Source of the DNA: Mucor racemosus
Lineage: Eukaryota; Mucoromycota; Mucoromycetes; Mucorales; Mucoraceae
Assembly (NCBI GenBank): GCA_027405735.1
Contig: JAPEHQ010000014.1
Span: 1 to 64,000, forward strand
Length of the DNA stretch: 64,000 nt
Direction of reading: 5' to 3'
Shown: piece by piece, positions 7,905-52,165 of the stretch
Numbering within the stretch: the stretch's first letter is position 1
How the letters are laid out: every line of letters begins with the position of its first letter
Notes under the pieces: generated by a model
Database searches by the model: none
Seen by the model: only the letters and a program-made list of their open reading frames with translations
Told to the model about the DNA's origin: nothing
Made by a program: the position numbers and the translations under genes

Positions 7905-9030
7905 TGCAGATTAACCTAAAAGCTATTCTACATTTTGGTTTCATTAAAAAATATTAATTTTTTGTAGAGATAATCAAAAAAAAAAAAATAACTCACATTA
8001 CAGCTTACATTCTATGCAGACTGAGTTTCAAAATCGATTTTGCAAAATCCATCAGAAAATGATAAAAAAAACAAATTTACTAATAGCTTATCAATTGCAA
8101 AGTAAGCCGACCTAGCTTACTAAATAGTTTTTGTACAGTTTCAGATTCTGCATCTATCTAAATAAAATTTAAATAAATGTTTCCCATTAAGTTTTGTGTA
8201 AAATGCAATTGTAAATTTGGAGATTTTTTGACAATACAGAACACTTTTTATAAGCATACTTTAAATTTAAATAATGGAAATAATGCGTACCAACATTATC
8301 TATCGATCGAGCTATTGTTTAACCTTTTAGCTGTATTTTTCGTGGAGGAAACGAGATTTTTGTCCAATTTTTTTTTTGAAATTCAGAATTTGGGATGAGG
8401 ATATACAAGGGGAAAATTGAGGTTAGAAATGAGGATATCTCTTTGTACACATTTTTGAGGATATCCACGAAAAATCAATATTTTAAAAAACTCTAAATTG
8501 GGTCCGAGAGAGCTTAACGAGCTTAATGACATGAATGTAAAAAAAATGCTTCTCAATTTAACGAATATTTTGAAACCTACAGCAAAAATACCAAAAAAAA
8601 AACAAAAAAAAAATAAAAGTGCTCAGAATTTTTTTATACTTAAATATGTTATAAAGCACGTCAAAACAAGTAAGTTTTATTATTAAAAAACGTTAGTATA
8701 GCTTAATGTTTTGTGGAGATATGAAGCCTCAAAGTTTTCAAACCTTTAGCAGTGAATTACGCGTAAAAAATCTGAAACATTAGCATTGAAAAATTAATAC
8801 CAACTGCAAAAAATAGGATATTTCCGGATACTTGTTTTTGGATTAAAGTCGGTCATCTCAGGTATATTGGCATATAATTTTTTCTTGGTGTTATTTAGTG
8901 AAAAAAAAAAGCTGAACAGGGATGATAAGTTGGTCTTCTGTTTATAGGAGAAAGCAGCAATTTTTTGCTTGATTTCGAGTCTTTCATGGAATATAAAATG
9001 AATTCAGGAACAGATAGCATAGTATAATTG
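7905..9030 (+). repeat. Dispersed repeat R1, copy 2
   Basis: Opposite orientation to the copy at 1290-2641. It carries the same landmarks: the GAGATAATC segment near 7967, the FLSNFFFEIQNLG piece near 8360, the poly-lysine-ending frame at 8498-8686 and the TTTCCGGATACTTG segment near 8820. Its two small frames are broken, so this is an older or more decayed copy. Confidence 0.7.
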
Positions 9031-23584: not shown

Positions 23585-25701
23585 TCAATAGTATTTAAGT
23601 GCAATCATTGCTACTGAATCGCATAACCAAGATGTTGTGTTTGCCTTAGGACTTTTAAAAGGGTTTAATAGCATGCTTTATCAAACTTATTACTTAGATG
23701 TTAAATACTTACCATATGCTATTATCATCTTGTTTTTTTATTTAATTGCTGTATTATTAAAAATCAAGCTTTCCATAGCTTATAACAATGACAGTAGGAT
23801 GTTTCTGATTTTAGATTGACATTTACAATAAGGCGGGCTGATGATACGTTTGATACTACTGTAGATGGATGGAACCAGTCAATTTAGTTTATGAAATTTG
23901 ACTGCAAATACCGAGGAACGATTTGTAAGTACTTAATAAGTTGGTTCTAATAAAGCATTGAATACATTGGATTGGGACAAAGAGGGCAGAAAGGCGACAA
24001 TATGTTCCTGTGATGGCAACGTTTATGTTTATGATATTGGAGAGGTAAGACTAAAACTCGATGTAGATTACCTCTAGAGCAATAATTATAAAGTAAGACT
24101 ATATTTATCAACAAATAAACTACGATACAATATTAATATGTACAAATATTTACAGTACCAAGTTTGAATCAAGTGGGTACAGCATCGTAAGTTCTTGAAA
24201 AAGTTCTGAGGTATAATAAAATCTCTTATTTTTAAAACTTACAAGGCTTATAAGCGGAATATTAATTTAGAAAATTATTTTTGTCCAGATCATCATTTTG
24301 ACATTTTTTTATTTTTTTTTTCTGATTTTGCAATTCTAGAGTGAATTATACTACCAATTATAAAAACAAAAAATATACACATATGCAGAATTTAGCGCTC
24401 TATTTGCTCAATAAAAAATAACAAACATTTTTATTGCAAAGTAATACATGAAAATCCTTTAACCAAAATCTTGTTTTTGGGGCAAAAGTACAAAGTTTCA
24501 TTACTTAACATTTAATATTAAGCTTTTATAAAATGTGTATTATCTATAGCTACAATTTTCTCTCATAATGTAGTATATTTAAAAGTTGATTTTGGTATCA
24601 AAATTTGATTTTTCTGTTTTTTTATCAAAATCATGAGTGTTGGTAAGGATGAAATGAGCCCCAAAAATGTCCGCTAAAAAATCTGAATTTTCAGACCGTA
24701 TGTGCTTAAATATAAGAAAAGCTGAAAAAGGAACGCCTTTTTATTTAAAACTTAGATATATCATCATATGAGAGACAACTTAGCTGTTCAATCTTGCTAT
24801 GCTTAATTACGGTGTTGCTCTAGGGGCTCGCTTTTGCAGTTTTTTAATAAATCTATGATATGACAGCCTGTTTTCTGGTAGAAAATGCATGTTGTTTCTA
24901 TGATAACAGATATTGGCTGTTTTGTTTAGCTTATGGGTTGATGCGCTGTAATGCTGCTTTTACATTGGCTGAAATGTGCAATTTAGCAGGGTTTTAATTG
25001 CGCTAAAGAATGTAAAGCCTTGAAAATCCTTTTATACGTGTGCTGTTTCTCTCTTTTTGTTTTCATATTCCAACGATATATTCACCGTTTGATAAGGCAT
25101 ATCAGCAGACTATCAAACTGGTATTCTTTTCTTTTATCTGAATACGCATGCTAGTATATGGGACTAATGTTTTAATATAGGTAGCATTCATTCGTTATAT
25201 TAGAGACTGATATTTTTATTTAACTACATTCTAAGACGAAATATCATTATTTACTACTGTATTTTTGGACGTATTTCTTGATTACCAGGTCAAATCGAAG
25301 GCAATGATACTTACTGTATATCTATTCAATGAAAAGCTAGAACTGGCTATAAACTCACGAAATGTTCCAGGAAAGTGATAAAATTTCAAATGACATAGAA
25401 ACACAAAAAAAAAAAGAATAATCTAATGTTTTGCATAATAACCATAGTTTTGATGGTAGCTATACTTGAAAACATATCTTTTTACAGCTGACAATCCGTA
25501 AGCTAAAATATTAAGTTTAAAGAAGGTTAATTTGTTTAAATTCTATACGTGATAAAGTAACATATATAATATTAGATTTGACTTGCCTATAAATTTAAGC
25601 AGTAAGTGGTATTTAAGTTTATGCTCGAGCAAAGACCATTGTTGCTGTAAACATTATAATTTATAATATCTATAAAATATTTACAAATGATGATAATCGT
25701 A
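23585..25701 (+). pseudogene. Dynein-exon repeat, copy B
   Basis: An intron-like acceptor (CTGATTTTAG, ending near 23815) leads into a decayed dynein intermediate chain exon at about 23816-24044: FDTTV, NQSI, TEERF, LNTLDWDKEGRKATICS and GNVYVYDIGE in mixed frames. A donor-like GTAAG follows at 24045. The remaining 1.65 kb is the same AT-rich tail found in copies A, C and D. The copy stops at the TA where the pogo-like element at 25702 inserted. It has the same orientation as copy D in the right palindrome arm and is more diverged from C and D than those are from each other. Confidence 0.7.
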
Positions 25702-26349
25702 CAGTCGTGATTAGATTTAGTGGAATCGTTTGGAGGGAGAAAGGTGTCCACTAAATCAAATTTTCCACCAAATCGAATAAATCATTTTCCGTAATATTGG
25801 ATCAAAAAATGAGAATAAAAAGGCGTTACTAGTTTATATTATTAAATAATGTTGTTAATAAAGGCTTTTCATATTCGAACAACTGAATTAAACAATGGAT
25901 AATAAGAAATTTATTAAAAAACTGAGGTAAATTAGGCACATGATTTGGTTATTCTCCATATTTCTTCTAATTTCATGGCTACCAGATCAAGCTATTCACG
26001 GCTAAATACAGTTTTATTCAATAGTGTTTATGTTTTACTAATATAGTGGACTGGTACACTATGAACAAAAAATCTCTTAATTCTCTTAATTGTGCCACAT
26101 TAAGGAAAATAAGAAAATTTTCACTGCTTATTTTTTTAAAATTTTGTCTTATTTTCCTTAATGTGGCATAATTAAGAGAATTAAGGGATTTCTTCTTTAT
26201 AGTGGTAGAGACAAAATTGTCCACTATTCCCTGAATCGATTCAGTGGATTTAGGCAGTAAAATTATGAAAAAAAAAACGGGAGATTTCAAACTGTCCATT
26301 AAATCGAAATCCGTTATTTACGAGTCCACTAAATCAAATCACGACTGTA
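25700..26349. mobile_element. pogo/Tc1-like MITE with 28-bp terminal inverted repeats and TA duplication
   Basis: The element runs 25702-26347 (646 bases). Its left end reads CAGTCGTGATTAGATTTAGT and its right end, on the other strand, CAGTCGTGATTTGATTTAGT. Both then continue GGAxTCG. TA flanks both sides (25700-25701 and 26348-26349). There is no transposase frame, so it is non-autonomous. The inverted repeats continue loosely inward, with further ACTAAATC blocks. A second MITE is nested inside (26057-26205). Its right edge is exactly where the giant inverted repeat begins. Confidence 0.8.
26055..26207. mobile_element. MITE M1, nested hairpin element
   Basis: About 149 bases, from CACTATGAACAAAAAATCTC to its inverted end at TTCTTTATAGTGG, flanked by TA on both sides. 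The two halves are almost complementary from end to end (TTAATTGTGCCACATTAAGG against its mirror), with a loop of about 30 bases, so the RNA would fold into a long hairpin. It sits inside the pogo-like element. The same family occurs at 29464-29606 and 39591-39733. Confidence 0.8.
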
Positions 26350-27649
26350 GGTATCTTATCAATTGAAAAAAAAATAGCATCAAACAACATGGATTCGTTT
26401 GAATTTTGACATTAAAATTTAAGTACAATTTGTATCTTTTATTTACAATATTTTGTTTAATTATAGCTACATTTTTGATAGAATAATAATGTATTGAATC
26501 CAAAAATTACAAAAACAACAAACATGGCTGGTCATGTTTATCAATTAAACACAAAACATCGGGATTTTTCATATCATGTTTCTTTACATTATAATGTGCC
26601 CAAAGTGCGTCGCTTTCATCTGTACTATTCCGATTAACTCTACCTGCATTTCTGATGGAGTAATGATACATTTTGGTTCATAAACAAGTACCTTTGAAAC
26701 AGTCGAAATGATGAGAGCGAGTGATATTACTCGAATTTGAAAGGGCGCCGAAATTTGCTAAGGGTATAAACCGGCCAATTATATCGCTCGATTCAAATCC
26801 TAAAAACCATTTTTAGGAGCGTCGTTTTAAATTTTGTCAATCCCAGATTCGTTCCGTAATCAATTTTGGATTAGATTTTTCATGAAAAACGATTCTAAAA
26901 ATTAAAATCGAATCATACTCGTGAGAATAGATAGTAAGTTGAATATGTTTATGAGAAACTTTTGACGTACATTTTTATTTCGCGTCGAATGGTGTTATTT
27001 TTAAAAATAATTTCTTAATAAAATTTTACACAAAATTAAAAATAAAAAATAACAGTTTTTGGGTAAAAAGTCATATTAGTTGAAAACAACCCATTAAATT
27101 AAACTATTGTAAATAATAGCCCTTATTTATACCTACATTTTGATATATTATTAATGATTGTAGCTATCTTTTTGGCTGAGAAAAATCAACTTTTTGATAT
27201 ATTTTTCAAAAAATCTATTTTCAGACGACCATATATAAGGGAAAAATTGATGGAGCTGAATTTGATTAGAAAAATTTACTAAAACTCAAATTTCTCCATG
27301 AGGTGTTGATACTTTTTGGAACAAAAAAATGAATTGGGTAGACAATCATTGGCACTATTATGTTAGCTAATAATTGCTTTAGGGAGCATATTTAGCTCTG
27401 CTTAATTTTGAAGAATTATCATTCTGATTTTTTAGACTTACCTCTCAAAATATCAGAAACATAAAGAAAGTTTTCGAATCTTTTAAGATTTTAATATGTA
27501 TGTTATAAAAAATAAAAAACAAGTAGTGTTTCATAATTGTTAAGACTTTGGTAGCTTATAATTTTATCGAGCTATTATCGACTAAATGCCATCATTTTTA
27601 GTAAGGAAAATCAAATACTGAGCCTTTTAAGCATTTAGTACCCACTTCT

Positions 27650-27946
27650 ATGCATATTGGATGGGATTTATTAGCTTATTGTGATACTGTAGTATATAAA
27701 GAAGAATTTGGTATTATTTGTTCAAGGACTTCCAATAGATTTATTGATTTGGTAAACTATCTGTGTCAAATATTGATCGTGCAATTTTCAATCCCAAGAC
27801 AATTTTTATGGAATTTTTTTAAAATTCATCCACTTGTTATGAGAATTATAACAGCCATGATGAATGCCACACATATTGTACAGGGAATATTAAAGTACTT
27901 TCTGCTTGATGGTAAAAAAAATCAATCAGAGATGATGAGAAAATAA
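27650..27946 (+). other. Unrecognised 98-codon open frame, present in both palindrome arms
   Basis: It starts MHIGWDLLAYCDTVV and ends in GKKNQSEMMRK. The mirror copy is 41251-41547 on the minus strand and is intact. It has a hydrophobic middle but no recognisable family, and no intron or promoter evidence. Preservation in both arms follows from the arms being nearly identical, so it is not evidence of selection. Probably not a gene. Confidence 0.2.
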
Positions 27947-28199
27947 CCGCTCACAATAAGCTACTGTACATGACTTGAGTCAGCGCTAGTTACATTCTAT
28001 AGATATGCATTTAATGACAAAAATCTTTATTTTCAAATCTATAAGAGCATTCATTTATGTCTAGCAGAGAAAGGGCTTTAGTGGATCTGAGAAAATTCTG
28101 TGCTCATATACTATACTTCTTGTATTGTAACAACAGTTTTTGAATTATGGTTACACATGTGGCCCATGTTAAATGAATGACGTAAATATTCCGAGCCTT

Positions 28200-28272
28200 C
28201 ACGCGTATATATACCGCAGCAAAGAGAAAACTTTTTCTTTTTCTTCTTTCTCCTCTTTTATAACTCATGGAT
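28200..28272 (+). promoter_or_regulatory. Orphan core-promoter-like segment in the palindrome arms
   Basis: CGCGTATATATACCGC, then a CT-rich run (TTTTTCTTTTTCTTCTTTCT), then an ATG at 28268. This looks like the core promoters and leaders of the true genes here (for example at 44390-44458). The frame after the ATG stops after six codons (MDVNNQ). The mirror copy is at about 40926-40997. It may be a captured host promoter. Confidence 0.35.
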
Positions 28273-28829
28273 GTCAACAATCAGTAATGGTTGTTGGCAT
28301 GCTATTTCGAGGATATGTTTGAATGAAATAGTACGTTTTAAATCCTCTAAAAAAAACAAAGCAATCTATATCCTGTTGAGTTTCGAAGTGGAATGCTTTT
28401 CAGTACAGTAAAAACAGAAAAGGGCATCCTCGAAGGCAAGACTTCTTCTTGAAGAAGCAAATATAATCAGGTAACTGGTAGTTTTGGATGCGTTTTTAGC
28501 CAGGGGGTTGAATAACTAAAAAAAATGCATCGAACAGAGTTTTTGAATTACATGTAATACTATCTGGCTGTTCTAAAACTACCCCAGAAAGTTTTCCCAT
28601 GAGAGACTTAAAATATGCTATAGCTCCCAACAATATCCTCGCAATATATTAGCAGCAACAAGCAAGCGCCTTTAAGCGTGTACAATCTCCTTAGGGGAGG
28701 ATCTGTCCGTTTAGAGATTGGAGTTGTTAGTTTCAAGAAATTGCAAAAAAAGTATCGACCCTGTTTATGTGGCAGGCTCACCCAACAACATTTCAACCGA
28801 TTGCTTCAATGACAAGTAAAATGACTCAA

Positions 28830-28925
28830 GACACGACCAAGGCAAGACCAAGGCAAGATCAAAACAGCATCAAGGCAATACCAAGGCAAAATTAAGACAG
28901 CACCAAGGCAATACCAAGGCAACAA
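28830..28925 (+). repeat. Short minisatellite, unit ACCAAGGCAA
   Basis: About nine imperfect copies of a ten-base unit. The mirror is at about 40272-40367. Non-coding. Confidence 0.65.
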
Positions 28926-29461
28926 CATATCAACTAGGCAATGTCAATGGGCCCTGTATCTTTTTTCCCTCTATTATTAGAGGTTTTTAATGGCAGTATA
29001 AAATGTAAAATATAAAGCTATAGCATATGTCTCGTAAATCCCTGATCCTTCACATATTAGTTCATCAATTGCTCTAATGGTTCAAATTTATCTAATAGTA
29101 AAGGTTTCCAATAAAAGTGTAATTTTTTCCTTGATAACAAATTTATTGATTTCCGGCTATTCTATTATTATTGATTTAATGTTTGTTGATTGATGAAAAG
29201 TAAATGATATATGAGATTAAAGGTTTTTTGTACTTTATACTGTATACTGTATACTATATATAATAATAATTGTGAGGCTGATTGACATTTGATATAAAAT
29301 TTGGTTGCTGTAGTATTTTGTTTGAGCATGGGCAAAATATAAATACTGTTAGAAAATGGCAACAAAATGCAAAACCTCACGAAGATTGAAAGAGGCTATT
29401 TACATTCATAACTGTTGTACAAAAACAGCATGTCAATACATACAGTAGTTCTAGTATACAG

Positions 29462-29608
29462 TACACTATGAAGAAAAAATCTCTTAATCCTCTTAATTGT
29501 GCCGCATTAAGGCAAATAAGAAAATTTTCACTGATTATTTTTTTGAATTTCGCCTTGATATGTCACAATTAAGAGAACAAATTAAGACGTTTTTTCTTCA
29601 TAGTGGTA
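29462..29608. mobile_element. MITE M2 (left arm)
   Basis: Same family as M1: CACTATGAAGAAAAAATCTC at the left and its complement ending TTCTTCATAGTGG at the right, flanked by TA. It has the same self-complementary body. The mirror-image copy is at 39591-39733, so this insertion happened before the arms were duplicated. Confidence 0.8.
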
Positions 29609-29689
29609 TATGCAAATGCATAGTGAGCGTTTACTTTTGGCTTTAGATTAATAAGTAAATGCATCTATTAGTAGCGTTCGCAAAATGAC

Positions 29690-30060
29690 CGAGCCCAACA
29701 CTACGGCCGACCTGTTGTGCTGCACAAGATGATTTTGTTGCGTCCATGTGGGCTGCACACTATGGCCTGATGCGTTGTTGCACCCACTGAATACTAGCTA
29801 AAAAAGATAACAAGATGTGCATGGGCATAACAAAAGAAACTGCTCACAAGCACAGCAAAAAGATTGTATGTGCAGAATTATAGATTTTGTCCGAGTGCAT
29901 GACATTAATCCCATGTGTGCATAATAATAGTAGAATTGCACATAAGCATATCATTATTCCTATTTGTGCATAATAATAATAAAATCTGACCATGAGCATA
30001 ATGAGCTGATCGTATGGGCAAAAATTGGTTTGTAAATGAGCATCGTGCCGTTCTCAAAAT
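29690..30060. repeat. Segment shared with the palindrome spacer
   Basis: The block around CTACGGCCGACCTGTTGTGC and the AATAACAAGATGTGCATGGG area recur, reversed, at 33430-33620 in the spacer, and in mirror at 39137-39507. So a third, more diverged copy lies between the arms. It may be another non-autonomous DNA element; I could not fix its ends. Confidence 0.5.
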
Positions 30061-30189
30061 TCCATTGCATTTTTTTTACTGGAATGGGGTTTTATATTAC
30101 ATTTGCTTTTATTAATATAGCTTATACATACTTATATAGACAATACCATTCAATATGTTTCTGATGTAGGGCAATACATGCAAGGTCCA

Positions 30190-32560
30190 ATACATTTACT
30201 GTACGATTATCATTATTTGTAAATATGTTTATAGTTATTATAATGCTTACAGCAACAATGGTCTTTGCTCGAGAATAAACTTAAATAACCCTTACTGCTT
30301 AAATTTATATGCAAGCCAAATCTACAATTATAGACGTTGCTTTATCATTCATAAAATTTAAACAAATTAACCTTGTTTAAACTTACTATTTTAGTTTACG
30401 ATTGTCAACTGTAAAAAGATTTGTTTTCAAGTATGCAGTAGTTACGATCATAACTATAGTTATTAAGCAAGACATCAGATTATTCCTTTTTTTTTTGTGT
30501 TTCTATATCATTTGAGATTTTATCACTTTTCTGGAACATTTCGTGAGTTTGTAGCCAGCTCTAGCTTTTCATTGAGTAGATATAAATATCATTGCCTTCC
30601 ATTTGATCTGGTAATCAAGAACTACGTCCAACAATACAGTAGTAAATAATGATATTTGATCTTAGAATGTAGTTAAATAAAAATATCAGTCTCTAATATA
30701 ACGAATGCTACCTATATTAAAAACATTAGTCCCATATGCTAGCATGCGTATTCAGATAAAAGAAAAGAATTCCAGTTTGATAGTCTGATATGCCTTATCA
30801 AACGGTGAAAATATCCTTGGAATATGAAAGCAAAAAGAGAGAAATAACACACGTAGAAAAGGATTTTCAAGGCTTTACATTATTTAGCGCAATTAAAACC
30901 CTGCTAAATTGCACATTCCAGTCAATGAGAAACATTTCTATTTACCATCAATAATTATTAGCAGATAATGTGAGATATTTCGCAAGCTTCAAACATCTCA
31001 TAATTTTTTTTTCTTTAAAAAAATCAATCAAAAAAAGCATGACTAAGTTTTTTTGGAACTTAATCATTAGGGATTGTAGATATATTTATTGCTTGATTAT
31101 CAATTTACAAAATAATATTAATTTCTATTTTAATTTTAATTCTTATTATAATATTATAATTACATGATCATGAATGTCTCTCAATGTAAAAGCAGCATTA
31201 CAGCGCATGAACCATAAACTAAGCAAAATACGCAATATCTGTTATCATAGAAACATGCATTTTTCTACCAGAAAGCCCGTCTGTCATATCGTACATTCAT
31301 TAAAAAATTGCAAAAGCGAGCCCGTAGAGCGACACCGTAGTTGAGCATAGCAAGATTGAACGGCTAAGTCTCTTACACTATGGAATATCTATGTTTCAAA
31401 TAAAAAAGCGTTTGTTTTTTTTTTACTTTTCTTATATTTAACTATATACTGTCTGAAAATTCAGACTCTGTAGCGGACATTTTTGGGGCTCATTTTATCC
31501 TTACCAATACACATGATTTATATCAAAAAACAGAAAAATCAAATTTTGATACCAAAATTAGCGTTTAAACATACTACATTGTGAGAGAAAATTGTAGCCA
31601 TAACTAATATACATTTTATGAAAGCTTAATATTAAATGTTAAGTAATGAAACTTTGTACTTTTGCCCCAAAAACGGGATTTTGGTTAAAGGATTTTTATG
31701 TAATATTTTGCAATAAAAACGTTTGTTATTTTTTATTGAGCAAATAGAGCGCTAAATTTTGTATATATGTATATTTTTTATTTTTATAATTGGCAGTATA
31801 ATTAACTCTAGATTTGCAAAATCAGAAAAAAAAATTAAAAAATGTCAAAATTAATGATCTGGATAAGAATAATTTTCTAAATTAATATCCCGCTTATAAG
31901 CCTTGTGAGTCTTAAAAATAAGGGATTTTATAATACTTCAGAACTTTTTCAAGAATTTACGATGCTGTACCAATTTGATTCAAGCTTATTACTGTAAATC
32001 TTTATATATGTTAATATTGCGTGGTAGTTTAATTGATGATAATATAGTCTTACGTTATAATTATTGCGCTAGAGGTAATTTACATTGAGCTTTAATCTTA
32101 CGTTTCCAATATCATAAACATAAACATAAACATAAACATTATCATCACTGAAACCTATTGCCGCCTTTTTATCCTCTTTTTCCGAAGCAAATTACTTAAT
32201 GCTTTATCAGAACCAACTGAAGCAGCACTTACAAATGATTCCTCGGCATTTGCATTCAAATTCCATAAACTAAATTGACTGGTTCCATATACAGTAGTAT
32301 CAAACTTATTATTAGTCCTCCATATGATAAATGCCGCCAATCTAAAATTAGAAACATCCCATTGTCATTGTTACAAGCTATTAAAAGCTTAATTTTAAAT
32401 AATACAGCTATTAAATACAAAACAAGATGATACTAATAGCATATGGTGAGTATTCAAAATCTAAGTGAGTTTGATGAAGTATGCTTCTAAACCCTTTTGA
32501 AAATCCTGAGGCAAACACAAGATCTTGGTCCTGTAATTTCTATCCATCAAAATGTCGCAA
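30190..32560 (-). pseudogene. Dynein-exon repeat, copy C (left arm)
   Basis: Read on the minus strand, the exon lies at about 32340-32110: acceptor-like TTTTAG, then FDTTVYGTSQFSLWNLNANA, EESFVSAASVGSDKALS and, after a frameshift, KKAAIG and VYVYDIG. This matches the blade of dynein intermediate chains that reads LDLWNLN...ALNRVRW...VGDSEG.I.VYDVGE. A GTTTATG hexamer is expanded four-fold inside it. The remaining 1.9 kb is the shared AT-rich tail. A 254-base insert interrupts the tail at 30928-31181. Confidence 0.75.
30923..31186. mobile_element. 254-bp insert with 5-bp duplication CAATG, left-arm copy
   Basis: Copies A and B of the dynein-exon repeat read straight through TTTACATTGGCTGAAATGTG, but here 254 bases (30928-31181) are inserted. 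CAATG is duplicated at both edges. The ends are short inverted repeats (AGAAACATT at one side, AATGTCTCT at the other). The interior is very AT-rich. The mirror copy is 38016-38269. Class unknown; a small non-autonomous DNA element is likely. Confidence 0.7.
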
Positions 32561-34208
32561 TTTTCACCACACAATGAATGCACCTTTTATTAATCTTGGC
32601 CTCGATATACATTGGGTATCAGTTTTTCACTATTGTATTTTCTCTGATTCATTAATATTAGGCCATATTGAACGATAGTGTATCAAATTTAAATTTACTA
32701 TTATACTGTTGGTATTTTTTTCTGTTATTATTAATTTAAAAACTTGATCCTATTATTATTATTATCATTATTGATTATAGTCGTCAAAATGATTCGTACA
32801 GTAAATCATATTACCATTTCAAATTGGTAGAAATTATACAATTGATATCTGCACTTAACACTTAACACTTGTAGATTGGAAAGTTGATGTCGTCTGTCTT
32901 TAGCTTGATGAATAATGCGTACTTTGGTTAACCAGTATGATTTATAATTGGAGGTGTTTCTACTCCTAAAAACTGAATTTTTAAATGCAACTGCATCTGT
33001 TGAATATCACTTGAGTTTCTGCGAGTTGTAGCTCATGTTATACTAACTCCCATTTTGGTAAAGATTGCTTTACATTCATCCACATTCAATTTTTCTGTTA
33101 TACAGCTTAATATTATTAATGTACTAACATTGAGTTGTGTCTATATCTCCATCAAAAATTGGCATTTTTTCCAGATGATGTCTACTACCAATTTCTAGAA
33201 AGCTCTACTATTATTATTTCCAAAAAAAAAATACACTTTAATTTGCTGCATTTCCCAAAATAATGAAAAACTGACAAATACATGTTCACATGTATGAAGA
33301 TTAAAATTGTAGACCAAAGGAGAGTGACGAGCTTAACGGGTGGTAGCGCATGCGCTATAAATTTAGTGGGACACACATATTCGTGAGTTCAAATAACACA
33401 CACGGTATCAATATCACGCACCTTGAAAGAATCTATAATTTTGCACATATAAATATTAGCTTTGTGCTCATGTGCAGTTTCTTTTGTTGAGCCCATGTGC
33501 ATATTGTTATCTTTTTAATTATATTCAGTTTGAACAACAGCTCAGGCTATAGTGTGCAGCAAACCCAGGCACAACACAATCATCTTATGCAGCACAGGTC
33601 GGCTGTAGTGCCTTTATATATAAATCTTTTAAATTTGTGATTTTATGCGCTTTTTGAATCCGGTTGTATTATCTTATATTTTTCAAGTTAAATCTGTTAT
33701 TAGGCTAATAATTTTGTAGGTTGTATTCATGCTTTACTTAAAATAAGCCTTTGAATAATTAATAGCTGAGAGTGTATGGATACATACAATCTTATTTATA
33801 GAAAGCACAAAAATAAAGACTAATAACATTTATCATGGAGAACGTAGGCTTTATTACTAAAAAAACTAATGGTAAAAGAAAGAACCAAGAGCTTCTAGGT
33901 CTTGGTTTAAAAGACTATTTATATGAATTACATTTCAATATGAGTTAGAAATAGAATTTGCTTCAAAATTGGCTGTTTTATACCCTCGAAAACCGAAAAT
34001 AGCAATACAGTCGAACCTTAATTTTTGTATGAAATTGCGATACTCGCAACTTATAGCTGCTTGGAATATTTAAACAACCGTGTCCGGGCTGTCCGGTAAT
34101 TTTTTTTATAAATTTAAAGCTTGGAAATATTATTAGATGGCCGCTTCCAGAGGTTGCTCGGCCTTTTTTGGAGGAGTGACCATTGGCAAAAAGATGAACC
34201 ATATACTA

Positions 34209-35060
34209 TGTTGTATGCCACGAAGTATCATATGTTATCAGTTTCTACATTATTAATATATCGTACAATCTATTGATTACGACATGTATTGAAGTTTGAA
34301 GTGACTACAAAAAATAGTAATTAAAAAACAAAAAAAAGCGTTACGAATACAATTATAACTCTTTGATATTTATTAAGATATAAAGTAAAGCAAAGGTTTA
34401 TGGATTACCATAGCCTTTGTGATATATATATTATTTTCTAATTCTATTAATAATACAGTAATAAGATCTTGAAGCAAGATCTTCGTGGTTTAGGTCTTAG
34501 TTCTTAGTTTGGAAGTACCATTGATACACTTTGACATTTTAAAGTTTTTTGTGATTTAAAGTTATTAGATCTTAGATGTTGCCTAAGATCAATTTGGTTA
34601 CTAAACAAACTTGGGATATGTAGTAGTTTACCACATAAAGTCTTGATATCAGATATAAAAAACTCCTAGAGTACTAATTTTAATCCAATAATTACCAAGA
34701 ACGCTTGGGCCTCAATTATGATACGATATTATTTCATCCCAGCGGTTAATTAATCAAGTAGCTATCAAATCAACATCCAACAAGCACATTTAGCGCAGCA
34801 TTGAAACAAGGTACTTTACAAGCTCTACAAGAACGGTTAAATTATGATTAATCCATTTCAATCCTTAAATTACTATCAAACAGATCTAATGGTTCAATAG
34901 TGCCCTAAGTTACACCTCAGGATATCAATATAAAAGGCCATACTTTTATATCTAAATAAACGATATCTTGTTTTTATTACACATTCGAAGAACTGATTCA
35001 TTACTCATTCTCTTTTAATTGTATTCTTTTTTAAGTATTATTTATCAAACCTAAAAATAC
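34209..35060. mobile_element. LTR2-type repeat, copy 1
   Basis: From TGTTGTATGCCACGAAGTAT to about TACACGACA. It is homologous to 53263-53822, which lacks about 320 bases of the middle. Shared blocks are CAAATCAACATCCAA, ACTATCAAACAGATCTAATG and GAAGAACTGATTCA.TACTC. TG...CA ends suggest an LTR, but no matching target duplication could be seen. Confidence 0.55.
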
Positions 35061-35157
35061 ACGACAAGGCTAAACCTTTGGAAATTCTGCGGATCAGCGC
35101 TAGAAGTGCCTGCCATTGCAACGGGGGGTCATTTGGATTCATATTTGTTGAGAAGAA

Positions 35158-35512
35158 CTGATTGTTGCATCCACAGATTTGGGTACATTCCTTGGTTAAG
35201 ATTACGACACAGTTTGATATGTTAAGTTCTACATTGCTGTGTATTATGTTATGAAGCTCCGTTTATACAGGAATATGGAACTAGTGTGTGTCACCTAGAC
35301 GTAATTGGATATATATATATATAATTAGACTCATTTTGGACTAGTCATATAATTAGAGAATGTGAATATAAAAGAAGATGTTTCGATCTTGTAATAAAGT
35401 TCTTTAGTTTTAGTGTGCTCTTTCATTTTATAACAGTTTTCCTTTATTTTTATTAAATAATTTAGTACATATTTTAGCTTTGAGATTGATATAATCTCCT
35501 GGCGTAACTGAT
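35158..35512. mobile_element. Solo LTR, family LTR1, copy 2, with target duplication CTGAT
   Basis: 35163-35507 matches the LTR at 3520-3867 almost base for base (TGTTGCATCCACAG... to ...CTCCTGGCGTAA). CTGAT flanks it on both sides (35158-35162 and 35508-35512). The last two bases of the LTR (CA) are not distinguishable. It split a 'GHCTF' repeat fragment whose two halves align with 50170-50370. Confidence 0.8.
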
Positions 35513-36639
35513 GGGCTTGCTGATTTTAGTAGGTGTAAGTAGCACGTAAGCAACTTGTTTCTCGAACTGGCTGAACGTACAATGACCCATGGATGCTAGT
35601 AGTTTTGGTGTCCAGCCGGTTTTTGCCAGCCAAACTTACTAGTATTCATATCATATGCATTGATGAAAAAGAAAAAATTTGCTAGACATATGCAAAACTT
35701 ACTAAGAAAAAAAAAGAAAAATCATATTCGATGAGAAGCAAGGTCATGGGATATTCTCTTTCGAAATTCATATCCTAATACCAATGAGCTTCCCCTTCGA
35801 CGGATTTAAAATCACGAATATGTGCGTCGCACTAAATTTATAGCGCATGCGCTACCACCCGTTAAGCTCGTCACTCTCCTTTGGTCTACAATTTTAATCT
35901 TCATACATGTGAACATGTATTTGTCAGTTTTTCATTATTTTGGGAAATGCAGCAAATTAAAGTGTATTTTTTTTTTGGAAATAATAATAGTAGAGCTTTC
36001 TAGAAATTGGTAGTAGACATCATCTGGAAAAAATGCCAATTTTTGATGGAGATATAGACACAACTCAATGTTAGTACATTAATAATATTAAGCTGTATAA
36101 CAGAAAAATTGAATGTGGATGAATGTAAAGCAATCTTTACCAAAATGGGAGTTAGTATAACATGAGCTACAACTCGCAGAAACTCAAGTGATATTCAACA
36201 GATGCAGTTGCATTTAAAAATTCAGTTTTTAGGAGTAGAAACACCTCCAATTATAAATCATACTGGTTAACCAAAGTACGCATTATTCATCAAGCTAAAG
36301 ACAGACGACATCAACTTTCCAATCTACAAGTGTTAAGTGCTAAGTGCAGATATCAATTGTATAATTTCTACCAATTTGAAATGGTAATATGATTTACTGT
36401 ACGAATCATTTTGACGACTATAATCAATAATAATAATAATAATAATAGGATCAAGTTTTTAAATTAATAATAACAGAAAAAAATACCAACAGTATAATAG
36501 TAAATTTAAATTTGATACACTATCGTTCAATATGGCCTAATATTAATGAATCAGAGAAAATACAATAGTGAAAAACTGATACCCAATGTATATCGAGGCC
36601 AAGATTAATAAAAGGTGCATTCATTGTGTGGTGAAAATT

Positions 36640-39003
36640 GCGACATTTTGATGGATAGAAATTACAGGACCAAGATCTTGTGTTTGCCTCAGGATTTTCA
36701 AAAGGGTTTAGAAGCATACTTCATCAAACTCACTTAGATTTTGAATACTCACCATATGCTATTAGTATCATCTTGTTTTGTATTTAATAGCTGTATTATT
36801 TAAAATTAAGCTTTTAATAGCTTGTAACAATGACAATGGGATGTTTCTAATTTTAGATTGGCGGCATTTATCATATGGAGGACTAATAATAAGTTTGATA
36901 CTACTGTATATGGAACCAGTCAATTTAGTTTATGGAATTTGAATGCAAATGCCGAGGAATCATTTGTAAGTGCTGCTTCAGTTGGTTCTGATAAAGCATT
37001 AAGTAATTTGCTTCGGAAAAAGAGGATAAAAAGGCGGCAATAGGTTTCAGTGATGATAATGTTTATGTTTATGTTTATGTTTATGATATTGGAAACGTAA
37101 GATTAAAGCTCAATGTAAATTACCTCTAGCGCAATAATTATAACGTAAGACTATATTATCATCAATTAAACTACCACGCAATATTAACATATATAAAGAT
37201 TTACAGTAATAAGCTTGAATCAAATTGGTACAGCATCGTAAATTCTTGAAAAAGTTCTGAAGTATTATAAAATCCCTTATTTTTAAGACTCACAAGGCTT
37301 ATAAGCGGGATATTAATTTAGAAAATTATTCTTATCCAGATCATTAATTTTGACATTTTTTAATTTTTTTTCTGATTTTGCAAATCTAGAGTTAATTATA
37401 CTGCCAATTATAAAAATAAAAAATATACATATATACAAAATTTAGCGCTCTATTTGCTCAATGAAAAATAACAAACGTTTTTATTGCAAAATATTACATA
37501 AAAATCCTTTAACCAAAATCCCGTTTTTGGGGCAAAAGTACAAAGTTTCATTACTTAACATTTAATATTAAGCTTTCATAAAATGTATATTAGTTATGGC
37601 TACAATTTTCTCTCACAATGTAGTATGTTTAAACGCTAATTTTGGTATCAAAATTTGATTTTTCTGTTTTTTGATATAAATCATGTGTATTGGTAAGGAT
37701 AAAATGAGCCCCAAAAATGTCCGCTACAGAGTCTGAATTTTCAGACAGTATATAGTTAAATATAAGAAAAGTAAAAAAAAAACAAACGCTTTTTTATTTG
37801 AAACATAGATATTCCATAGTGTAAGAGACTTAGCCGTTCAATCTTGCTATGCTCAACTACGGTGTCGCTCTACGGGCTCGCTTTTGCAATTTTTTAATGA
37901 ATGTACGATATGACAGACGGGCTTTCTGGTAGAAAAATGCATGTTTCTATGATAACAGATATTGCGTATTTTGCTTAGTTTATGGTTCATGCGCTGTAAT
38001 GCTGCTTTTACATTGAGAGACATTCATGATCATGTAATTATAATATTATAATAAGAATTAAAATTAAAATAGAAATTAATATTATTTTGTAAATTGATAA
38101 TCAAGCAATAAATATATCTACAATCCCTAATGATTAAGTTCCAAAAAAACTTAGTCATGCTTTTTTTGATTGATTTTTTTAAAGAAAAAAAAATTATGAG
38201 ATGTTTGAAGCTTGCGAAATATCTCACATTATCTGCTAATAATTATTGATGGTAAATAGAAATGTTTCTCATTGACTGGAATGTGCAATTTAGCAGGGTT
38301 TTAATTGCGCTAAATAATGTAAAGCCTTGAAAATCCTTTTCTACGTGTGTTATTTCTCTCTTTTTGCTTTCATATTCCAAGGATATTTTCACCGTTTGAT
38401 AAGGCATATCAGACTATCAAACTGGAATTCTTTTCTTTTATCTGAATACGCATGCTAGCATATGGGACTAATGTTTTTAATATAGGTAGCATTCGTTATA
38501 TTAGAGACTGATATTTTTATTTAACTACATTCTAAGATCAAATATCATTATTTACTACTGTATTGTTGGACGTAGTTCTTGATTACCAGATCAAATGGAA
38601 GGCAATGATATTTATATCTACTCAATGAAAAGCTAGAGCTGGCTACAAACTCACGAAATGTTCCAGAAAAGTGATAAAATCTCAAATGATATAGAAACAC
38701 AAAAAAAAAAGGAATAATCTGATGTCTTGCTTAATAACTATAGTTATGATCGTAACTACTGCATACTTGAAAACAAATCTTTTTACAGTTGACAATCGTA
38801 AACTAAAATAGTAAGTTTAAACAAGGTTAATTTGTTTAAATTTTATGAATGATAAAGCAACGTCTATAATTGTAGATTTGGCTTGCATATAAATTTAAGC
38901 AGTAAGGGTTATTTAAGTTTATTCTCGAGCAAAGACCATTGTTGCTGTAAGCATTATAATAACTATAAACATATTTACAAATAATGATAATCGTACAGTA
39001 AAT
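36640..39003 (+). pseudogene. Dynein-exon repeat, copy D (right arm)
   Basis: The plus-strand mirror of copy C. The exon lies at about 36858-37090, preceded by an acceptor-like TTTTAG at 36851-36856. It is open as far as SNLLRKKRIKRRQ, where a frameshift derails it. Upstream, 36640-36730 is also shared with copy B (CAAGATCTTGTGTTTGCCTC). So the repeat carries genomic, intron-bearing sequence, not a cDNA copy. Confidence 0.75.
38011..38274. mobile_element. 254-bp insert with duplication CATTG, right-arm copy
   Basis: 38016-38269, flanked by CATTG at 38011-38015 and 38270-38274. Mirror of 30928-31181. Absent from dynein-exon copies A and B. Confidence 0.7.
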
Positions 39004-39588
39004 GTATTGGACCTTGCATGTATTGCCCTACATCAGAAACATATTGAATGGTATTGTCTATATAAGTATGTATAAGCTATATTAATAAAAGCAAATGTAA
39101 TATAAAACCCCATTCCAGTAAAAAAAATGCAATGGAATTTTGAGAACGGCACGATGCTCATTTACAAACCAATTTTTGCCCATACGATCAGCTCATTATG
39201 CTCATGGTCAGATTTTATTATTATTATGCACAAATAGGAATAATGATATGCTTATGTGCAATTCTACTATTATTATGCACACATGGGATTAATGTCATGC
39301 ACTCGGACAAAATCTATAATTCTGCACATACAATCTTTTTGCTGTGCTTGTGAGCAGTTTCTTTTGTTATGCCCATGCACATCTTGTTATCTTTTTTAGC
39401 TAGTATTCAGTGGGTGCAACAACGCATCAGGCCATAGTGTGCAGCCCACATGGACGCAACAAAATCATCTTGTGCAGCACAACAGGTCGGCCGTAGTGTT
39501 GGGCTCGGTCATTTTGCGAACGCTACTAATAGATGCATTTACTTATTAATCTAAAGCCAAAAGTAAACGCTCACTATGCATTTGCATA

Positions 39589-39735
39589 TACCACTATGAA
39601 GAAAAAACGTCTTAATTTGTTCTCTTAATTGTGACATATCAAGGCGAAATTCAAAAAAATAATCAGTGAAAATTTTCTTATTTGCCTTAATGCGGCACAA
39701 TTAAGAGGATTAAGAGATTTTTTCTTCATAGTGTA
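39589..39735. mobile_element. MITE M3 (right arm)
   Basis: 39591-39733, mirror of M2, flanked by TA on both sides. The body is self-complementary. Confidence 0.8.
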
Positions 39736-42700
39736 CTGTATACTAGAACTACTGTATGTATTGACATGCTGTTTTTGTACAACAGTTATGAATGTAAATA
39801 GCCTCTTTCAATCTTCGTGAGGTTTTGCATTTTGTTGCCATTTTCTAACAGTATTTATATTTTGCCCATGCTCAAACAAAATACTACAGCAACCAAATTT
39901 TATATCAAATGTCAATCAGCCTCACAATTATTATTATATATAGTATACAGTATACAGTATAAAGTACAAAAAACCTTTAATCTCATATATCATTTACTTT
40001 TCATCAATCAACAAACATTAAATCAATAATAATAGAATAGCCGGAAATCAATAAATTTGTTATCAAGGAAAAAATTACACTTTTATTGGAAACCTTTACT
40101 ATTAGATAAATTTGAACCATTAGAGCAATTGATGAACTAATATGTGAAGGATCAGGGATTTACGAGACATATGCTATAGCTTTATATTTTACATTTTATA
40201 CTGCCATTAAAAACCTCTAATAATAGAGGGAAAAAAGATACAGGGCCCATTGACATTGCCTAGTTGATATGTTGTTGCCTTGGTATTGCCTTGGTGCTGT
40301 CTTAATTTTGCCTTGGTATTGCCTTGATGCTGTTTTGATCTTGCCTTGGTCTTGCCTTGGTCGTGTCTTGAGTCATTTTACTTGTCATTGAAGCAATCGG
40401 TTGAAATGTTGTTGGGTGAGCCTGCCACATAAACAGGGTCGATACTTTTTTTGCAATTTCTTGAAACTAACAACTCCAATCTCTAAACGGACAGATCCTC
40501 CCCTAAGGAGATTGTACACGCTTAAAGGCGCTTGCTTGTTGCTGCTAATATATTGCGAGGATATTGTTGGGAGCTATAGCATATTTTAAGTCTCTCATGG
40601 GAAAACTTTCTGGGGTAGTTTTAGAACAGCCAGATAGTATTACATGTAATTCAAAAACTCTGTTCGATGCATTTTTTTTAGTTATTCAACCCCCTGGCTA
40701 AAAACGCATCCAAAACTACCAGTTACCTGATTATATTTGCTTCTTCAAGAAGAAGTCTTGCCTTCGAGGATGCCCTTTTCTGTTTTTACTGTACTGAAAA
40801 GCATTCCACTTCGAAACTCAACAGGATATAGATTGCTTTGTTTTTTTTAGAGGATTTAAAACGTACTATTTCATTCAAACATATCCTCGAAATAGCATGC
40901 CAACAACCATTACTGATTGTTGACATCCATGAGTTATAAAAGAGGAGAAAGAAGAAAAAGAAAAAGTTTTCTCTTTGCTGCGGTATATATACGCGTGAAG
41001 GCTCGGAATATTTACGTCATTCATTTAACATGGGCCACATGTGTAACCATAATTCAAAAACTGTTGTTACAATACAAGAAGTATAGTATATGAGCACAGA
41101 ATTTTCTCAGATCCACTAAAGCCCTTTCTCTGCTAGACATAAATGAATGCTCTTATAGATTTGAAAATAAAGATTTTTGTCATTAAATGCATATCTATAG
41201 AATGTAACTAGCGCTGACTCAAGTCATGTACAGTAGCTTATTGTGAGCGGTTATTTTCTCATCATCTCTGATTGATTTTTTTTACCATCAAGCAGAAAGT
41301 ACTTTAATATTCCCTGTACAATATGTGTGGCATTCATCATGGCTGTTATAATTCTCATAACAAGTGGATGAATTTTAAAAAAATTCCATAAAAATTGTCT
41401 TGGGATTGAAAATTGCACGATCAATATTTGACACAGATAGTTTACCAAATCAATAAATCTATTGGAAGTCCTTGAACAAATAATACCAAATTCTTCTTTA
41501 TATACTACAGTATCACAATAAGCTAATAAATCCCATCCAATATGCATAGAAGTGGGTACTAAATGCTTAAAAGGCTCAGTATTTGATTTTCCTTACTAAA
41601 AATGATGGCATTTAGTCGATAATAGCTCGATAAAATTATAAGCTACCAAAGTCTTAACAATTATGAAACACTACTTGTTTTTTATTTTTTATAACATACA
41701 TATTAAAATCTTAAAAGATTCGAAAACTTTCTTTATGTTTCTGATATTTTGAGAGGTAAGTCTAAAAAATCAGAATGATAATTCTTCAAAATTAAGCAGA
41801 GCTAAATATGCTCCCTAAAGCAATTATTAGCTAACATAATAGTGCCAATGATTGTCTACCCAATTCATTTTTTTGTTCCAAAAAGTATCAACACCTCATG
41901 GAGAAATTTGAGTTTTAGTAAATTTTTCTAATCAAATTCAGCTCCATCAATTTTTCCCTTATATATGGTCGTCTGAAAATAGATTTTTTGAAAAATATAT
42001 CAAAAAGTTGATTTTTCTCAGCCAAAAAGATAGCTACAATCATTAATAATATATCAAAATGTAGGTATAAATAAGGGCTATTATTTACAATAGTTTAATT
42101 TAATGGGTTGTTTTCAACTAATATGACTTTTTACCCAAAAACTGTTATTTTTTATTTTTAATTTTGTGTAAAATTTTATTAAGAAATTATTTTTAAAAAT
42201 AACACCATTCGACGCGAAATAAAAATGTACGTCAAAAGTTTCTCATAAACATATTCAACTTACTATCTATTCTCACGAGTATGATTCGATTTTAATTTTT
42301 AGAATCGTTTTTCATGAAAAATTTAATCCAAAATTGATTACGGAACGAATCTGGGATTGACAAAATTTAAAACGACGCTCCTAAAAATGGTTTTTAGGAT
42401 TTGAATCGAGCGATATAATTGGCCGGTTTATACCCTTAGCAAATTTCGGCGCCCTTTCAAATTCGAGTAATATCACTCGCTCTCATCATTTCGACTGTTT
42501 CAAAGGTACTTGTTTATGAACCAAAATGTATCATTACTCCATCAGAAATGCAGGTAGAGTTAATCGGAATAGTACAGATGAAAGCGACGCACTTTGGGCA
42601 CATTATAATGTAAAGAAACATGATATGAAAAATCCCGATGCTTTGTGTTTAATTGATAAACATGACCAGTCATGTTTGTTGTTTTTGTAATTTTTGGATT

Positions 42701-42849
42701 CAATACATTATTATTCTATCAAAAATGTAGCTATAATTAAACAAAATATTGTAAATAAAAGATACAAATTGTATGTAAATTTTAATGTCAAAATTCAAAC
42801 GAATCCATGTTGTTTGATGCTATTTTTTTTTCAATTGATAAGATACCTA

Positions 42850-44387
42850 GTTATTTAGCGATTTTTACAGATTTCAGAAGCTTTGTAACACTTTTAAAAG
42901 TAGTTTTGCCTATTTTTACCCTAAATAATATCTTTAATTTGATGTATTATGTTTTTAAAAAGCTTAAAAATTGGTGGAGATATTAGTTGCTGAAAAAATA
43001 GAATATTTCACATTTCTTAGACGTTAGGTGATGGAACAATGTCAATGAGCAAGGCACATTGATAAACAATAACAGCATTCAAAGTTACTGTACTTGATAA
43101 TATTCTTGATTTGATAAGTTTTTTATGGGTGTTTCTGTGCAAAATGACTATAAAATAAGCAAATATGCATAAAATCAGATTCAATTTTGCATAATAAAAC
43201 TCATGCAAAAACGTCAAATTGTTAATATTGTATATATTATGTTTTGGTTAGTACATGACATTTGAAGATAGTTAATATCACTAACAAAAAGTATTGGAGA
43301 AACTCAAGTCAAAAATCGGTTTTAATTAATATCATCTTTGGCATTGCCAGCAAATTATCTGTAACTGAAAGCAGGTTTGAAATTTTCGTAAATTTCCTCT
43401 CAGTACACCGAGGGAGAAAAAATAACCATGATTGAAAAAAAAAAAAAAGTCTAATTAATCCCTCAATTTGATATATTTTAACTTTTCTATGTATGTATAT
43501 ATACAGCATCATGAGATACATACAAGTTAATAAATAAATGCTCTTTTTATATAAGATCGAAGTCGTCATGCAATGTATTTTACTTGTAATTTATCAAAAA
43601 CTTTGGGTATTCAATTGTACTTCTTATTTAACAGTTGTTTTATTGGGAGATCAATAGACAACAACCAATAATAATAGAAACATATCGTAGCAGACAGTGC
43701 CATCTATGGTACTGGCTGGCTTGCAGTCAAAGATTTTCGTTGAATTATGGAGTACATAATTGACAAAGGAAACAGTGTGATAAGCCGGATTATTGCTTCA
43801 AAACATATATACCTCAAAATGGTAGTCGAGTTCAAGCTGTACTGATAGTCTGTTAACAGTCTGTATAATCGAGTTTTGTTTTGGAAATCCTTGTCCGTAT
43901 TACATGCACATATATATCACAATATAAGATACTTTTTATAATTCTATTCTTTTTTTTTTTTTAGCATTTCGCATATAGTGCAATCTCAAAAAAAAAAAAA
44001 AAGATTTAGTGGGGTGTTTATGTAATTAGCGATCAGGACGAATTTTTTCTTGCACATAAAAATCAAATAATAAAAAGATTGTCGCATTGCTCTAGTGAAA
44101 TGAGCAGGTGATACTAAAAATCCCAATGTAAATGAAAATAGGTTTCCTGGGTGTTGTGTAACCAAGGAGAATCTTTGCATATCATGGTAACCATGAAATA
44201 AAAACGGTTCTCATGGCAACAAAATCAATGCAAGGAGAAACCAACAAAGATCTATATCAAACTTTGAAATACCATTGTATTTGTTATTGTAGTATAGTAG
44301 TATAAGTTCAGAGTAGGTGACTATCTGATAAACAGTTTGAAAGTTTTATCTGAATCTCAAGTGCAAAAAAGAGTACCCGCCATCTCA
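42850..44387. other. Intergenic; no gene recognised
   Basis: Flank of the palindrome, leading to the ArfGAP promoter. Short open frames (43017-43217, 43309-43569) show no family resemblance. I see nothing I can name. Confidence 0.5.
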
Positions 44388-50849: not shown

Positions 50850-52165
50850 GATTTTTTGTATTCACAAGAAAGACCCAAGCCTACGCTACTCTGTACTTCT
50901 TGTTTTAGTGAAAAATATTGGTTTTTCGTCGAGATAATCAAAATAATAGTTCACATTACAGCTTACAGTATACATTCTATGCTAACTGAGTTCCAATTTG
51001 TTTTTGTTGAAATGAACGAAAAATGATTCAAAAAAACAAACTCGTTTAATAGCTCATGAACTGCAAAGTAAGTCGACCTAGTATATTAAATAATTTTTGT
51101 GCAGTTTTGGATTCTGCATCCATCTAAACAAAATCCAAACAGACGTTTTACATTAAAATTTGCGCAAAATGCGATTGAAATTTTGGAGGTTTTTGGAAGA
51201 TACACATCACTTTTCATACGCATATTTTAAATTTGAATAATGGAGATAATGCACAGCCAAATTACCTATTGATCGAGCTATTATTTAACCTTTTAGCTGC
51301 ATTTTTCGTAGAGAAAACAATATTTTTGTCCAATTTTTTTGAAATTCAGAATTTGGGATGAGGGTACACAAGGGGAAAATTGAAGCCAGGAACGAAGGTA
51401 TCTTTTTGTACACATTTTTGAGGATATCTCCACGAAAAATCCATATTTTAAAAAAATCCTAAATTGGATCCAAGAGTGCTCAACGAGCTCAATGACATGA
51501 ATGTAAAAAAAGCGCTGCTCGAGTTAACCAATATTTTGAAATCTGCTGCAAAAATGTCAAAAAAATGCAAAAAAAATAAAAGTGCTCAAATTTTTTTATA
51601 CTTAAATATGTTTTAGAGCGCTTTAAAACAAGTAAGTTTTATTATTAAAAAGTGTTAGTATAGCTTAATTATTTCTAGAGATATGAAGCCTCAAAATTTT
51701 GAATCCTTTAGCAGTAAAATACGCGTAAAAAACCTTAAACATTAGCACTGAAAAATTAATACCAACTGCAAAAAGTAGGATATTTCCGGATACTTGTTTT
51801 TGGATTAAAGCTGAACATCTCAGGTACATTGGCATATAAGTTTTTCTTGGTGTTATTTAGTGAAAAAAAAAGTAGAGCAGGGATAAAAAGTGACACCCAG
51901 TTTTCAAGGAAAAAGCAGTGAATTTTACGTGTTTTTGAGCCTTTCATGAGATATAACATGAATTCAGGAATAGCTAGCATAATGTGGCTAATGTGTATCT
52001 ATTTTGTGGTCTCTGAGGTATATACTAAAAAATGTTTATTATGAGGTTTAGTTATAGAAAAGAAGGCACGCTCTGGTTTTGAAGATTGAAACTATGAATT
52101 TTTTTTTATGAATTCAAATTTAATATCAAAATCCATTTTAACTTATCGAGCGTAGTTTCTTCGTT
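50850..52165 (+). repeat. Dispersed repeat R1, copy 4
   Basis: Same orientation as copies 2 and 5. It carries an intact 74-codon minus-strand frame (51756-51980) with the same start, length and end as the one in copy 5 (55311-55535), differing at only a few residues. Its homology to copy 5 continues past the frame, with the TTAGTTATAGAAAAGAAG block at 52047. Confidence 0.7.

What the first reader, a model, noticed from the sequence alone, without database searches (positions are those of the whole stretch)
26348..42849. Giant, nearly perfect inverted repeat: 7.04 kb arms, 2.4 kb spacer
Seen directly: 26348-33386 and 35812-42849 are reverse complements with positions summing to 69197-69198. 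Only about ten substitutions and one homopolymer indel were noticed by eye. Natural palindromes of this size are unstable and rare in fungi unless recent or kept alike by gene conversion. The arms carry nested insertions (254-bp insert, MITE, dynein-exon repeat) in both copies, so the inverted duplication came after them. It could be a recent breakage-fusion or template-switch event, or an assembly artefact.
Basis: seen in the sequence. Interest (0 to 1): 0.8.

Follow-up and report, generated by a model that had tools for sequence, protein, structure and literature searches.

The report
Fungal repeat palindrome homogenised by conversion
A 16.5-kb stretch of a Mucor-like fungal genome holds two 7-kb mirror-image copies of transposon-derived DNA that are almost identical, most likely because the cell copies one arm onto the other, and similar near-perfect pairs were found at several other places where copies of this transposon lie back to back.

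Summary
The inverted repeat is real in the assembly: 26348-33394 and 35804-42849, 7,047 columns, 12 substitutions, one 1-base gap, 2,409-bp spacer. The arms are composite repeat DNA without recognised genes: a truncated dispersed repeat D plus half of a CACTAC-ended noncoding element A. The closest other copy (C14:165-172 kb) is 94-95% identical over D and outer A, the rest mostly 75-90%, so the arms are far more alike than the family background. It is not unique. Among nearby inverted pairs of A listed from the match tables, 7 of 9 are at least 99.5% identical (6 of 9 if C21 is scored whole); among direct pairs, 0 of 6 exceed 95%. At three loci the near-perfect core runs into the same repeat at lower identity, twice across an insertion, and the window mismatches crowd at the arm ends. 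That is the footprint of arm-to-arm gene conversion on older inverted repeats rather than one fresh inverted duplication. No read-level assembly check was possible. Conversion-homogenised inverted repeats are known; this instance was not met in the capped listings searched.

The parts
26348..33394 (+). left arm of the inverted repeat
   Evidence: 99.816% to the reverse complement of 35804-42849, 12 mismatches, 1 gap
35804..42849 (-). right arm of the inverted repeat
33395..35803 (.). spacer, 2,409 bp: pieces of the centre of element A plus a 343-bp insertion
   Evidence: pieces match A copies at C11, C1, C14:172.7-173.6 kb and C26
29699..33394 (+). left half of element A; terminus CACTACGGCCGACC at 29699
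   Evidence: terminal motif; genomic copies mostly at 75-90%
35804..39498 (-). right half of element A; terminus at 39498
26348..29698 (+). dispersed repeat D, left copy, cut at 26348
   Evidence: C14:165055-168346 95%, C18 86%, C1 80%, others 74-87%
39499..43376 (-). dispersed repeat D, right copy; runs on past the arm end to 43376
   Evidence: 42840-43376 adjoins D in C18, C1, C5, C15 and C26
25704..26347 (+). Tc1/mariner-like noncoding element (class by its ends, recalled) with CAGTCGTGATT...AATCACGACTG ends and TA on both sides, abutting the left arm end; itself carries a MITE
   Evidence: sequence; about 40 similar places listed; same junction at C14:165055
30928..31181 (+). 254-bp insertion in the left arm (38016-38269 in the right arm), absent from the C14:169.5-kb copy
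29460..29610 (+). palindromic MITE in the left arm (about 39587-39737 in the right arm); limits approximate
35163..35505 (+). 343-bp insertion in the spacer; the empty site is seen at C14:172.7 kb
23626..25705 (-). another, diverged inverted copy of A beside the left arm (85-89%), not homogenised

Best explanation
The palindrome is an older inverted pair of the same composite repeat (D joined to one half of the long-ended element A). Recombination repair between the two arms has recently made them nearly identical: a break or stalled fork in one arm is repaired by copying the other, and copying stops at or near the place where the arms cease to match (the Tc1-like element on the left outer side, the inner junction 33394/35804). 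Such pairs persist when inverted because a crossover only flips the spacer, while an equally similar direct pair would delete what lies between. Shown: arm identity, mismatch clustering, the shared older left junction, recurrence, and the orientation contrast in a small sample. Inferred: conversion as the copying process, its recency, and the reason for the orientation contrast.
For: (1) 9 of 12 substitutions lie in the outer 600 or inner 100 bp of the 7,047-bp arm (cut chosen after seeing the data); mean distance to the nearest arm end is 329 against 1,761 expected, not reached in 200,000 draws; the 4,860-bp mismatch-free run was reached in about 1 of 50,000 draws. (2) The left arm's outer junction (Tc1-like element, then D cut at 26348) also exists at C14:165055, about 5% diverged, so it is older than the 99.8% arms. 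The right arm end runs on into D as in 5 of the 6 other listed copies that reach D's first five bases. (3) Other A loci: C26:173605-179468 versus 180579-186441, 5,864 bp, 1 mismatch and 1 gap, with the same repeat at 78-86% beyond an indel of about 627 bp; C21 core 1,637 bp, 0 mismatches, then 96.3% and 95.4% beyond an indel of 231 bp; C18 about 1.2 kb with 0 mismatches, then 5-12 mismatches per 100 bp on its outer side; C26:238956-246223, 2,459 columns, 3 mismatches, all within 14 bp of the terminus; C4:1623932, 3 of 4 mismatches within 11 bp of one arm end. (4) At least 99.5% in 7 of 9 inverted against 0 of 6 direct nearby pairs, Fisher two-sided P = 0.007; with C21 scored whole (98.4%) 6 of 9, P = 0.028.
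Against: Two nearby inverted pairs are not homogenised (C20 85.0%; the window's own 23626-25705 copy against the left arm, 85-89%). At C6, C4:1516918 and C26:238956 no diverged homology was found outside the core (for the last only about 0.5 kb of flank was held), so a fresh inverted duplication is not excluded there. With looser scoring the C26:173.6-kb alignment is longer and has 10 mismatches, 2 gaps. At the 12 window substitutions the C14 copy agrees with the left arm at 7, the right at 3, neither at 2: no clean donor. Three of the palindromes were noticed before the list was made. No reads, second strain or related species were available.
Confidence: 0.67

Rival explanations
1. One recent inverted duplication: a broken end folded back or switched template at 33394/35804, copied outward for 7 kb, then joined the Tc1-like element.
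For: 99.8% identity; an asymmetric inner junction that, among the 40 matches listed for a 100-bp junction query, matched in full only at its own place; the 254-bp insertion and the MITE at the same positions in both arms; a single-copy-like order at C14:165-177 kb. Clustered changes at the inner junction could also come from error-prone repair (my inference).
Against: Mismatches would be spread evenly, yet they crowd at both ends; the outer junction is older and shared with C14:165055; it does not explain diverged homology outside the perfect cores at C26, C21 and C18.
Confidence: 0.17
2. Assembly artefact: a false join, or consensus homogenised between two similar copies.
For: Arms are long; the one gap between the arms lies in an A-run and other loci show isolated one-base gaps, as expected of long-read consensus; no reads to test.
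Against: 12 true substitutions, 9 of them transitions; the two outer flanks differ and the right one is the natural continuation of D; similar near-perfect pairs at other loci, three with a sharp step to lower homology; direct pairs at like spacing in the same assembly are not homogenised.
Confidence: 0.09
3. Element-intrinsic identity: the arms are the terminal inverted repeats of one recently moved foldback-like element.
For: A has CACTAC-type termini at more than ten ends and long inverted halves; C26:238953-246226 and C21:67804-74261 look like whole elements.
Against: Window arms run 3,351 bp beyond the termini at 29699/39498; in C26:173605 and C6 the palindrome centre lies at the element's outer end; no target-site duplication was found at the few termini compared.
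Confidence: 0.07

Closest known systems
Human Y-chromosome palindromes homogenised by gene conversion (P6; PMC3723533, passages seen)
   Same: Inverted arms kept far more alike than their age, multi-kilobase tracts, spacer retained
   Different: Much longer, on a constitutively haploid chromosome; population data exist there, none here
Caenorhabditis inverted repeats kept alike within species (PMC1803023, passages seen)
   Same: Arms far more alike within a genome than copies elsewhere; gene conversion discussed by the authors
   Different: Paralogous gene pairs, with the structure shown across species; here noncoding repeat DNA and no second species
Galileo and Foldback-type transposons (PMC3573991, passages seen; Tetris, PMC4079207, passages seen)
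   Same: Long, length-variable inverted ends, extended by recruiting neighbouring sequence; chimeric copies; recombination and conversion proposed by the authors
   Different: Different termini and host; here arms extend outward past the element into 3.35 kb of another repeat, and identity is near 100% within several loci against mostly 75-90% between loci
CACTA (En/Spm) transposons (terminal motif recalled; reviews seen in listing only)
   Same: Ends begin CACTAC
   Different: No transposase domain found in the element and no target duplication found; ends are kilobases long

Membership tests
Gene-conversion-homogenised inverted repeats | Arms more alike than either is to other copies of the same sequence | tested here: met
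   99.8% between arms; D elsewhere 74-95%, A elsewhere mostly 75-90%
Gene-conversion-homogenised inverted repeats | Identical core bounded by diverged homology or heterology | tested here: met
   Window edge mismatches and Tc1-like boundary; C26:173.6 kb, C21, C18. Not seen at C6, C4:1516918, C26:238956
Gene-conversion-homogenised inverted repeats | Inverted structure older than arm divergence, seen in relatives | not testable with these tools
   Only this one genome could be searched
Foldback/Galileo-type long-ended element | Long inverted ends sharing a common terminus across copies | tested here: met
   CACTAC-type terminus at more than ten ends; long inverted halves at C26:239 kb and C21
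Foldback/Galileo-type long-ended element | Target-site duplication at intact copies | tested here: inconclusive
   No matching flank at the window or C21 termini; the right end at C26:246226 is interrupted; few copies with both ends held
CACTA superfamily | CACTA terminus | tested here: met
CACTA superfamily | 2-3 bp target duplication | tested here: inconclusive
   Only a few termini compared, none matching
CACTA superfamily | Related transposase | tested here: not met
   No transposase family in six frames of 33397-42849; an autonomous partner elsewhere was not sought, so it is not filed as CACTA
Breakage-fusion / template-switch inverted duplication | Differences spread evenly along the arms | tested here: not met

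The most novel reading that the evidence does not exclude
The near-perfect palindromes are kept by selection as natural hairpin-RNA sources: read-through transcripts of the arms would fold into long double-stranded RNA that feeds the fungal RNAi pathway against A, D and the Tc1-like elements, so that conversion between arms maintains a silencing locus. No RNA evidence was looked at.
Probability: 0.07. Interest if true: 0.75.

Novelty: new member of a known kind. Interest (0 to 1): 0.42.

Why it matters
If the orientation contrast holds genome-wide, an ordinary transposon family in a Mucor-like fungus offers replicate palindromes for measuring how inverted repeats are created, homogenised and kept, outside sex chromosomes. 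It also warns that high identity between inverted repeats is not a clock for their age.

Tried and rejected
Coding content: six frames of 33397-42849, with stop codons read as X, against Pfam gave no family above its cut-off; Rfam gave nothing at gathering score over the window and only matches below gathering score at the inner junctions. The 113-aa frame in D found no PDB chain. The innermost 50 bp looked tRNA-like to me; ARAGORN found no tRNA in four dispersed copies, and their alignment shows a dispersed repeat that runs on beyond the junction. I first took A for an LTR element because of a direct end repeat at C14; termini in both orientations overturned that. Another dispersed repeat (54244-55527) was tried as a control: among 41 listed matches (40 of 3,185 candidates scored) there was no inverted pair within 5 kb, so whether homogenisation is special to A is not known. 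No unbiased genome-wide palindrome survey was possible, as the genome gives no file. Loci C26:174.5-184.4 kb, C21 and C6 were fetched because their table rows already looked like equal inverted pairs, and C20, C4:1516 kb and C26:238 kb because they showed inverted rows. The pair list holds 112 rows: 85 of the 120 matches, 23 of the 155 (not all of which were printed), and 4 window copies; the low-scoring rows were dropped, and the tool says its counts are lower bounds. C18 was found by self-alignment and is left out of the 9.
Full report
Observation. The window is C14:1-64000 of a 53.2-Mb, 54-contig genome. The best protein match that bears an organism name is from Mucor plumbeus (97% over 94% of a 408-aa metal-transporter exon), so the host is a Mucor or close kin. 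The inverted repeat is 26348-33394 against 35804-42849, with 12 substitutions and one gap in 7,047 columns.

Anatomy. The outer 3,351 bp of each arm is a dispersed repeat, D; the inner 3.7 kb is half of a noncoding element, A, whose end reads CACTACGGCCGACC at 29699 and, inverted, at 39498. A has many copies in the genome, mostly 75-90% identical to the arm. Both arms carry the same 254-bp insertion and the same MITE; the spacer carries a 343-bp insertion. The 254-bp and 343-bp insertions were recognised by empty sites at C14, the MITE by family copies.

The two outer ends are unequal. On the right, D runs on past the arm end to 43376, as it does in 5 of the 6 other listed copies that reach D's first five bases (C18, C1, C15, C5, C26). 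On the left, D is cut at 26348 by a Tc1-like element with TA on both sides. The sixth copy, C14:165055, has that same cut and the same Tc1-like element, at about 95% identity, but different sequence to the left of it. The left junction is therefore older than the near-identity of the arms.

Where the arms differ. Five of the 12 substitutions lie in the outer 527 bp and four in the inner 26 bp; three remain in the 6.5 kb between. Under even scatter the mean distance to the nearest arm end would be 1,761 bp; it is 329, a value not reached in 200,000 draws. At the inner edge the right arm has three changes not shared by the left arm or by the seven other copies aligned there. Against the C14 copy, the left arm agrees at 7 of 12 sites, the right arm at 3, neither at 2, which names no donor.

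Recurrence. From the match tables I listed pairs of A copies within 10 kb and measured them by self-alignment. Inverted: window 99.82, C26:173.6 kb 99.97, C21 99.94 (core; about 98.4 with its two flanking pieces), C6 99.85 (0 mismatches, 3 gaps), C4:1516.9 kb 100, C26:239 kb 99.84, C4:1623.9 kb 99.56, C20 85.0, and the window's own extra copy 85-89. Direct: C14 86.0 (shorter pieces 92.1 and 88.8), C11 94.8 and 89.9, C1:289 kb 86.5, C8 93.4 and 79.1, C4:314 kb 88.6, C1:2226 kb 86.3 and 80.8. That is 7 of 9 against 0 of 6 at 99.5% or more (Fisher P = 0.007; 6 of 9 and P = 0.028 if C21 is scored whole). C18, found outside the tables, is 97.8% overall with about 1.2 kb free of mismatches. The sample is small, the tables are lower bounds, and several palindromes were noticed before the list was made.

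Edges elsewhere. At C26:173.6 kb the core has 1 mismatch in 5,864 bp, ends at an indel of about 627 bp, and the repeat goes on at 78-86%; a looser alignment takes in 10 mismatches over 5,905 columns. At C21 the core ends at an indel of 231 bp and the repeat goes on at 96.3% and 95.4%. At C18 the mismatch-free core gives way on its outer side to 5-12 mismatches per 100 bp. At C26:239 kb and C4:1623.9 kb, 3 of 3 and 3 of 4 mismatches lie within 14 and 11 bp of one arm end. At C6, C4:1516.9 kb and C26:239 kb nothing homologous was found outside the core. Pooling chosen cores of eight loci gives 5 mismatches in 21,951 bp; the cores were chosen after the fact.

Mechanism. Old, diverged inverted copies with a nearly perfect middle that stops at heterologies are what gene conversion leaves. 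In published cases, palindrome arms on the human Y exchange sequence in multi-kilobase tracts with rare inversions (PMC3723533, passages seen), worm inverted repeats stay alike within species while diverging between species (PMC1803023, passages seen), and the authors on Galileo propose that long inverted ends attract recombination and conversion (PMC3573991, passages seen). That direct pairs at like distance are not alike here may reflect loss of similar direct pairs by deletion, which is my inference.

Novelty. Searches of the held papers for fungal palindromes with gene conversion, long-end homogenisation, Galileo, Mucoromycota CACTA repeats, and Mucor with inverted repeats, hairpins or Grem-LINE1 showed, in the capped listings (2 to 20 papers each), no title or abstract start that describes this in Mucor; of these papers four were seen in passages and the rest in the listing only. 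The kind of process is known; this is a new and fairly rich instance. On rechecking, the figures for divergence of other copies, the C21 score and the target-duplication verdict were mended; the confidence was lowered by 0.01 and that of the artefact raised by 0.01 for the C21 point.

Noticed in passing
C26:173605-186441 (L014, L026, L027): A second large palindrome: 5.86-kb arms with one mismatch around a 1.1-kb spacer.
   Followed up: partly
window 28091-29190 against the C14 copy 139 kb away: About 1.1 kb of the arm differs from the C14 copy at only 8 of 1,037 aligned bases, with some gaps, while bins on either side mostly differ by 2-7% and 4-19%; this hints at exchange between the two loci too.
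   Followed up: partly
C18:706656, C21:70903, C4:1518048, C8:1983275: A second kind of CACTAC terminus (continuing GGCCGAACTATGCTT or GGCCAAACTATGCTT) inside or beside A copies, twice in palindrome spacers; perhaps a nested relative.
   Followed up: no
window 1-420: The contig begins inside what looks like a HAD-type phosphatase gene (recalled from the sequence, no call); no telomere repeat was seen in 1-1300, so the palindrome is not shown to be subtelomeric.
   Followed up: no
window 54244-55527: A 1.28-kb dispersed repeat with 39 further places listed at 86-92%, also seen at 1288-2568, 7922-9021 and 50885-52105.
   Followed up: no
window 33344-33394: The innermost 50 bp of the arms belong to a dispersed repeat with 38 further listed places on many contigs.
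   Followed up: partly
C1:5938276-5938531 and C18:710058-710310: Pieces of the last 0.4 kb of D (29260-29670) also lie just beyond D's other end in two loci, so D may have direct end repeats.
   Followed up: no
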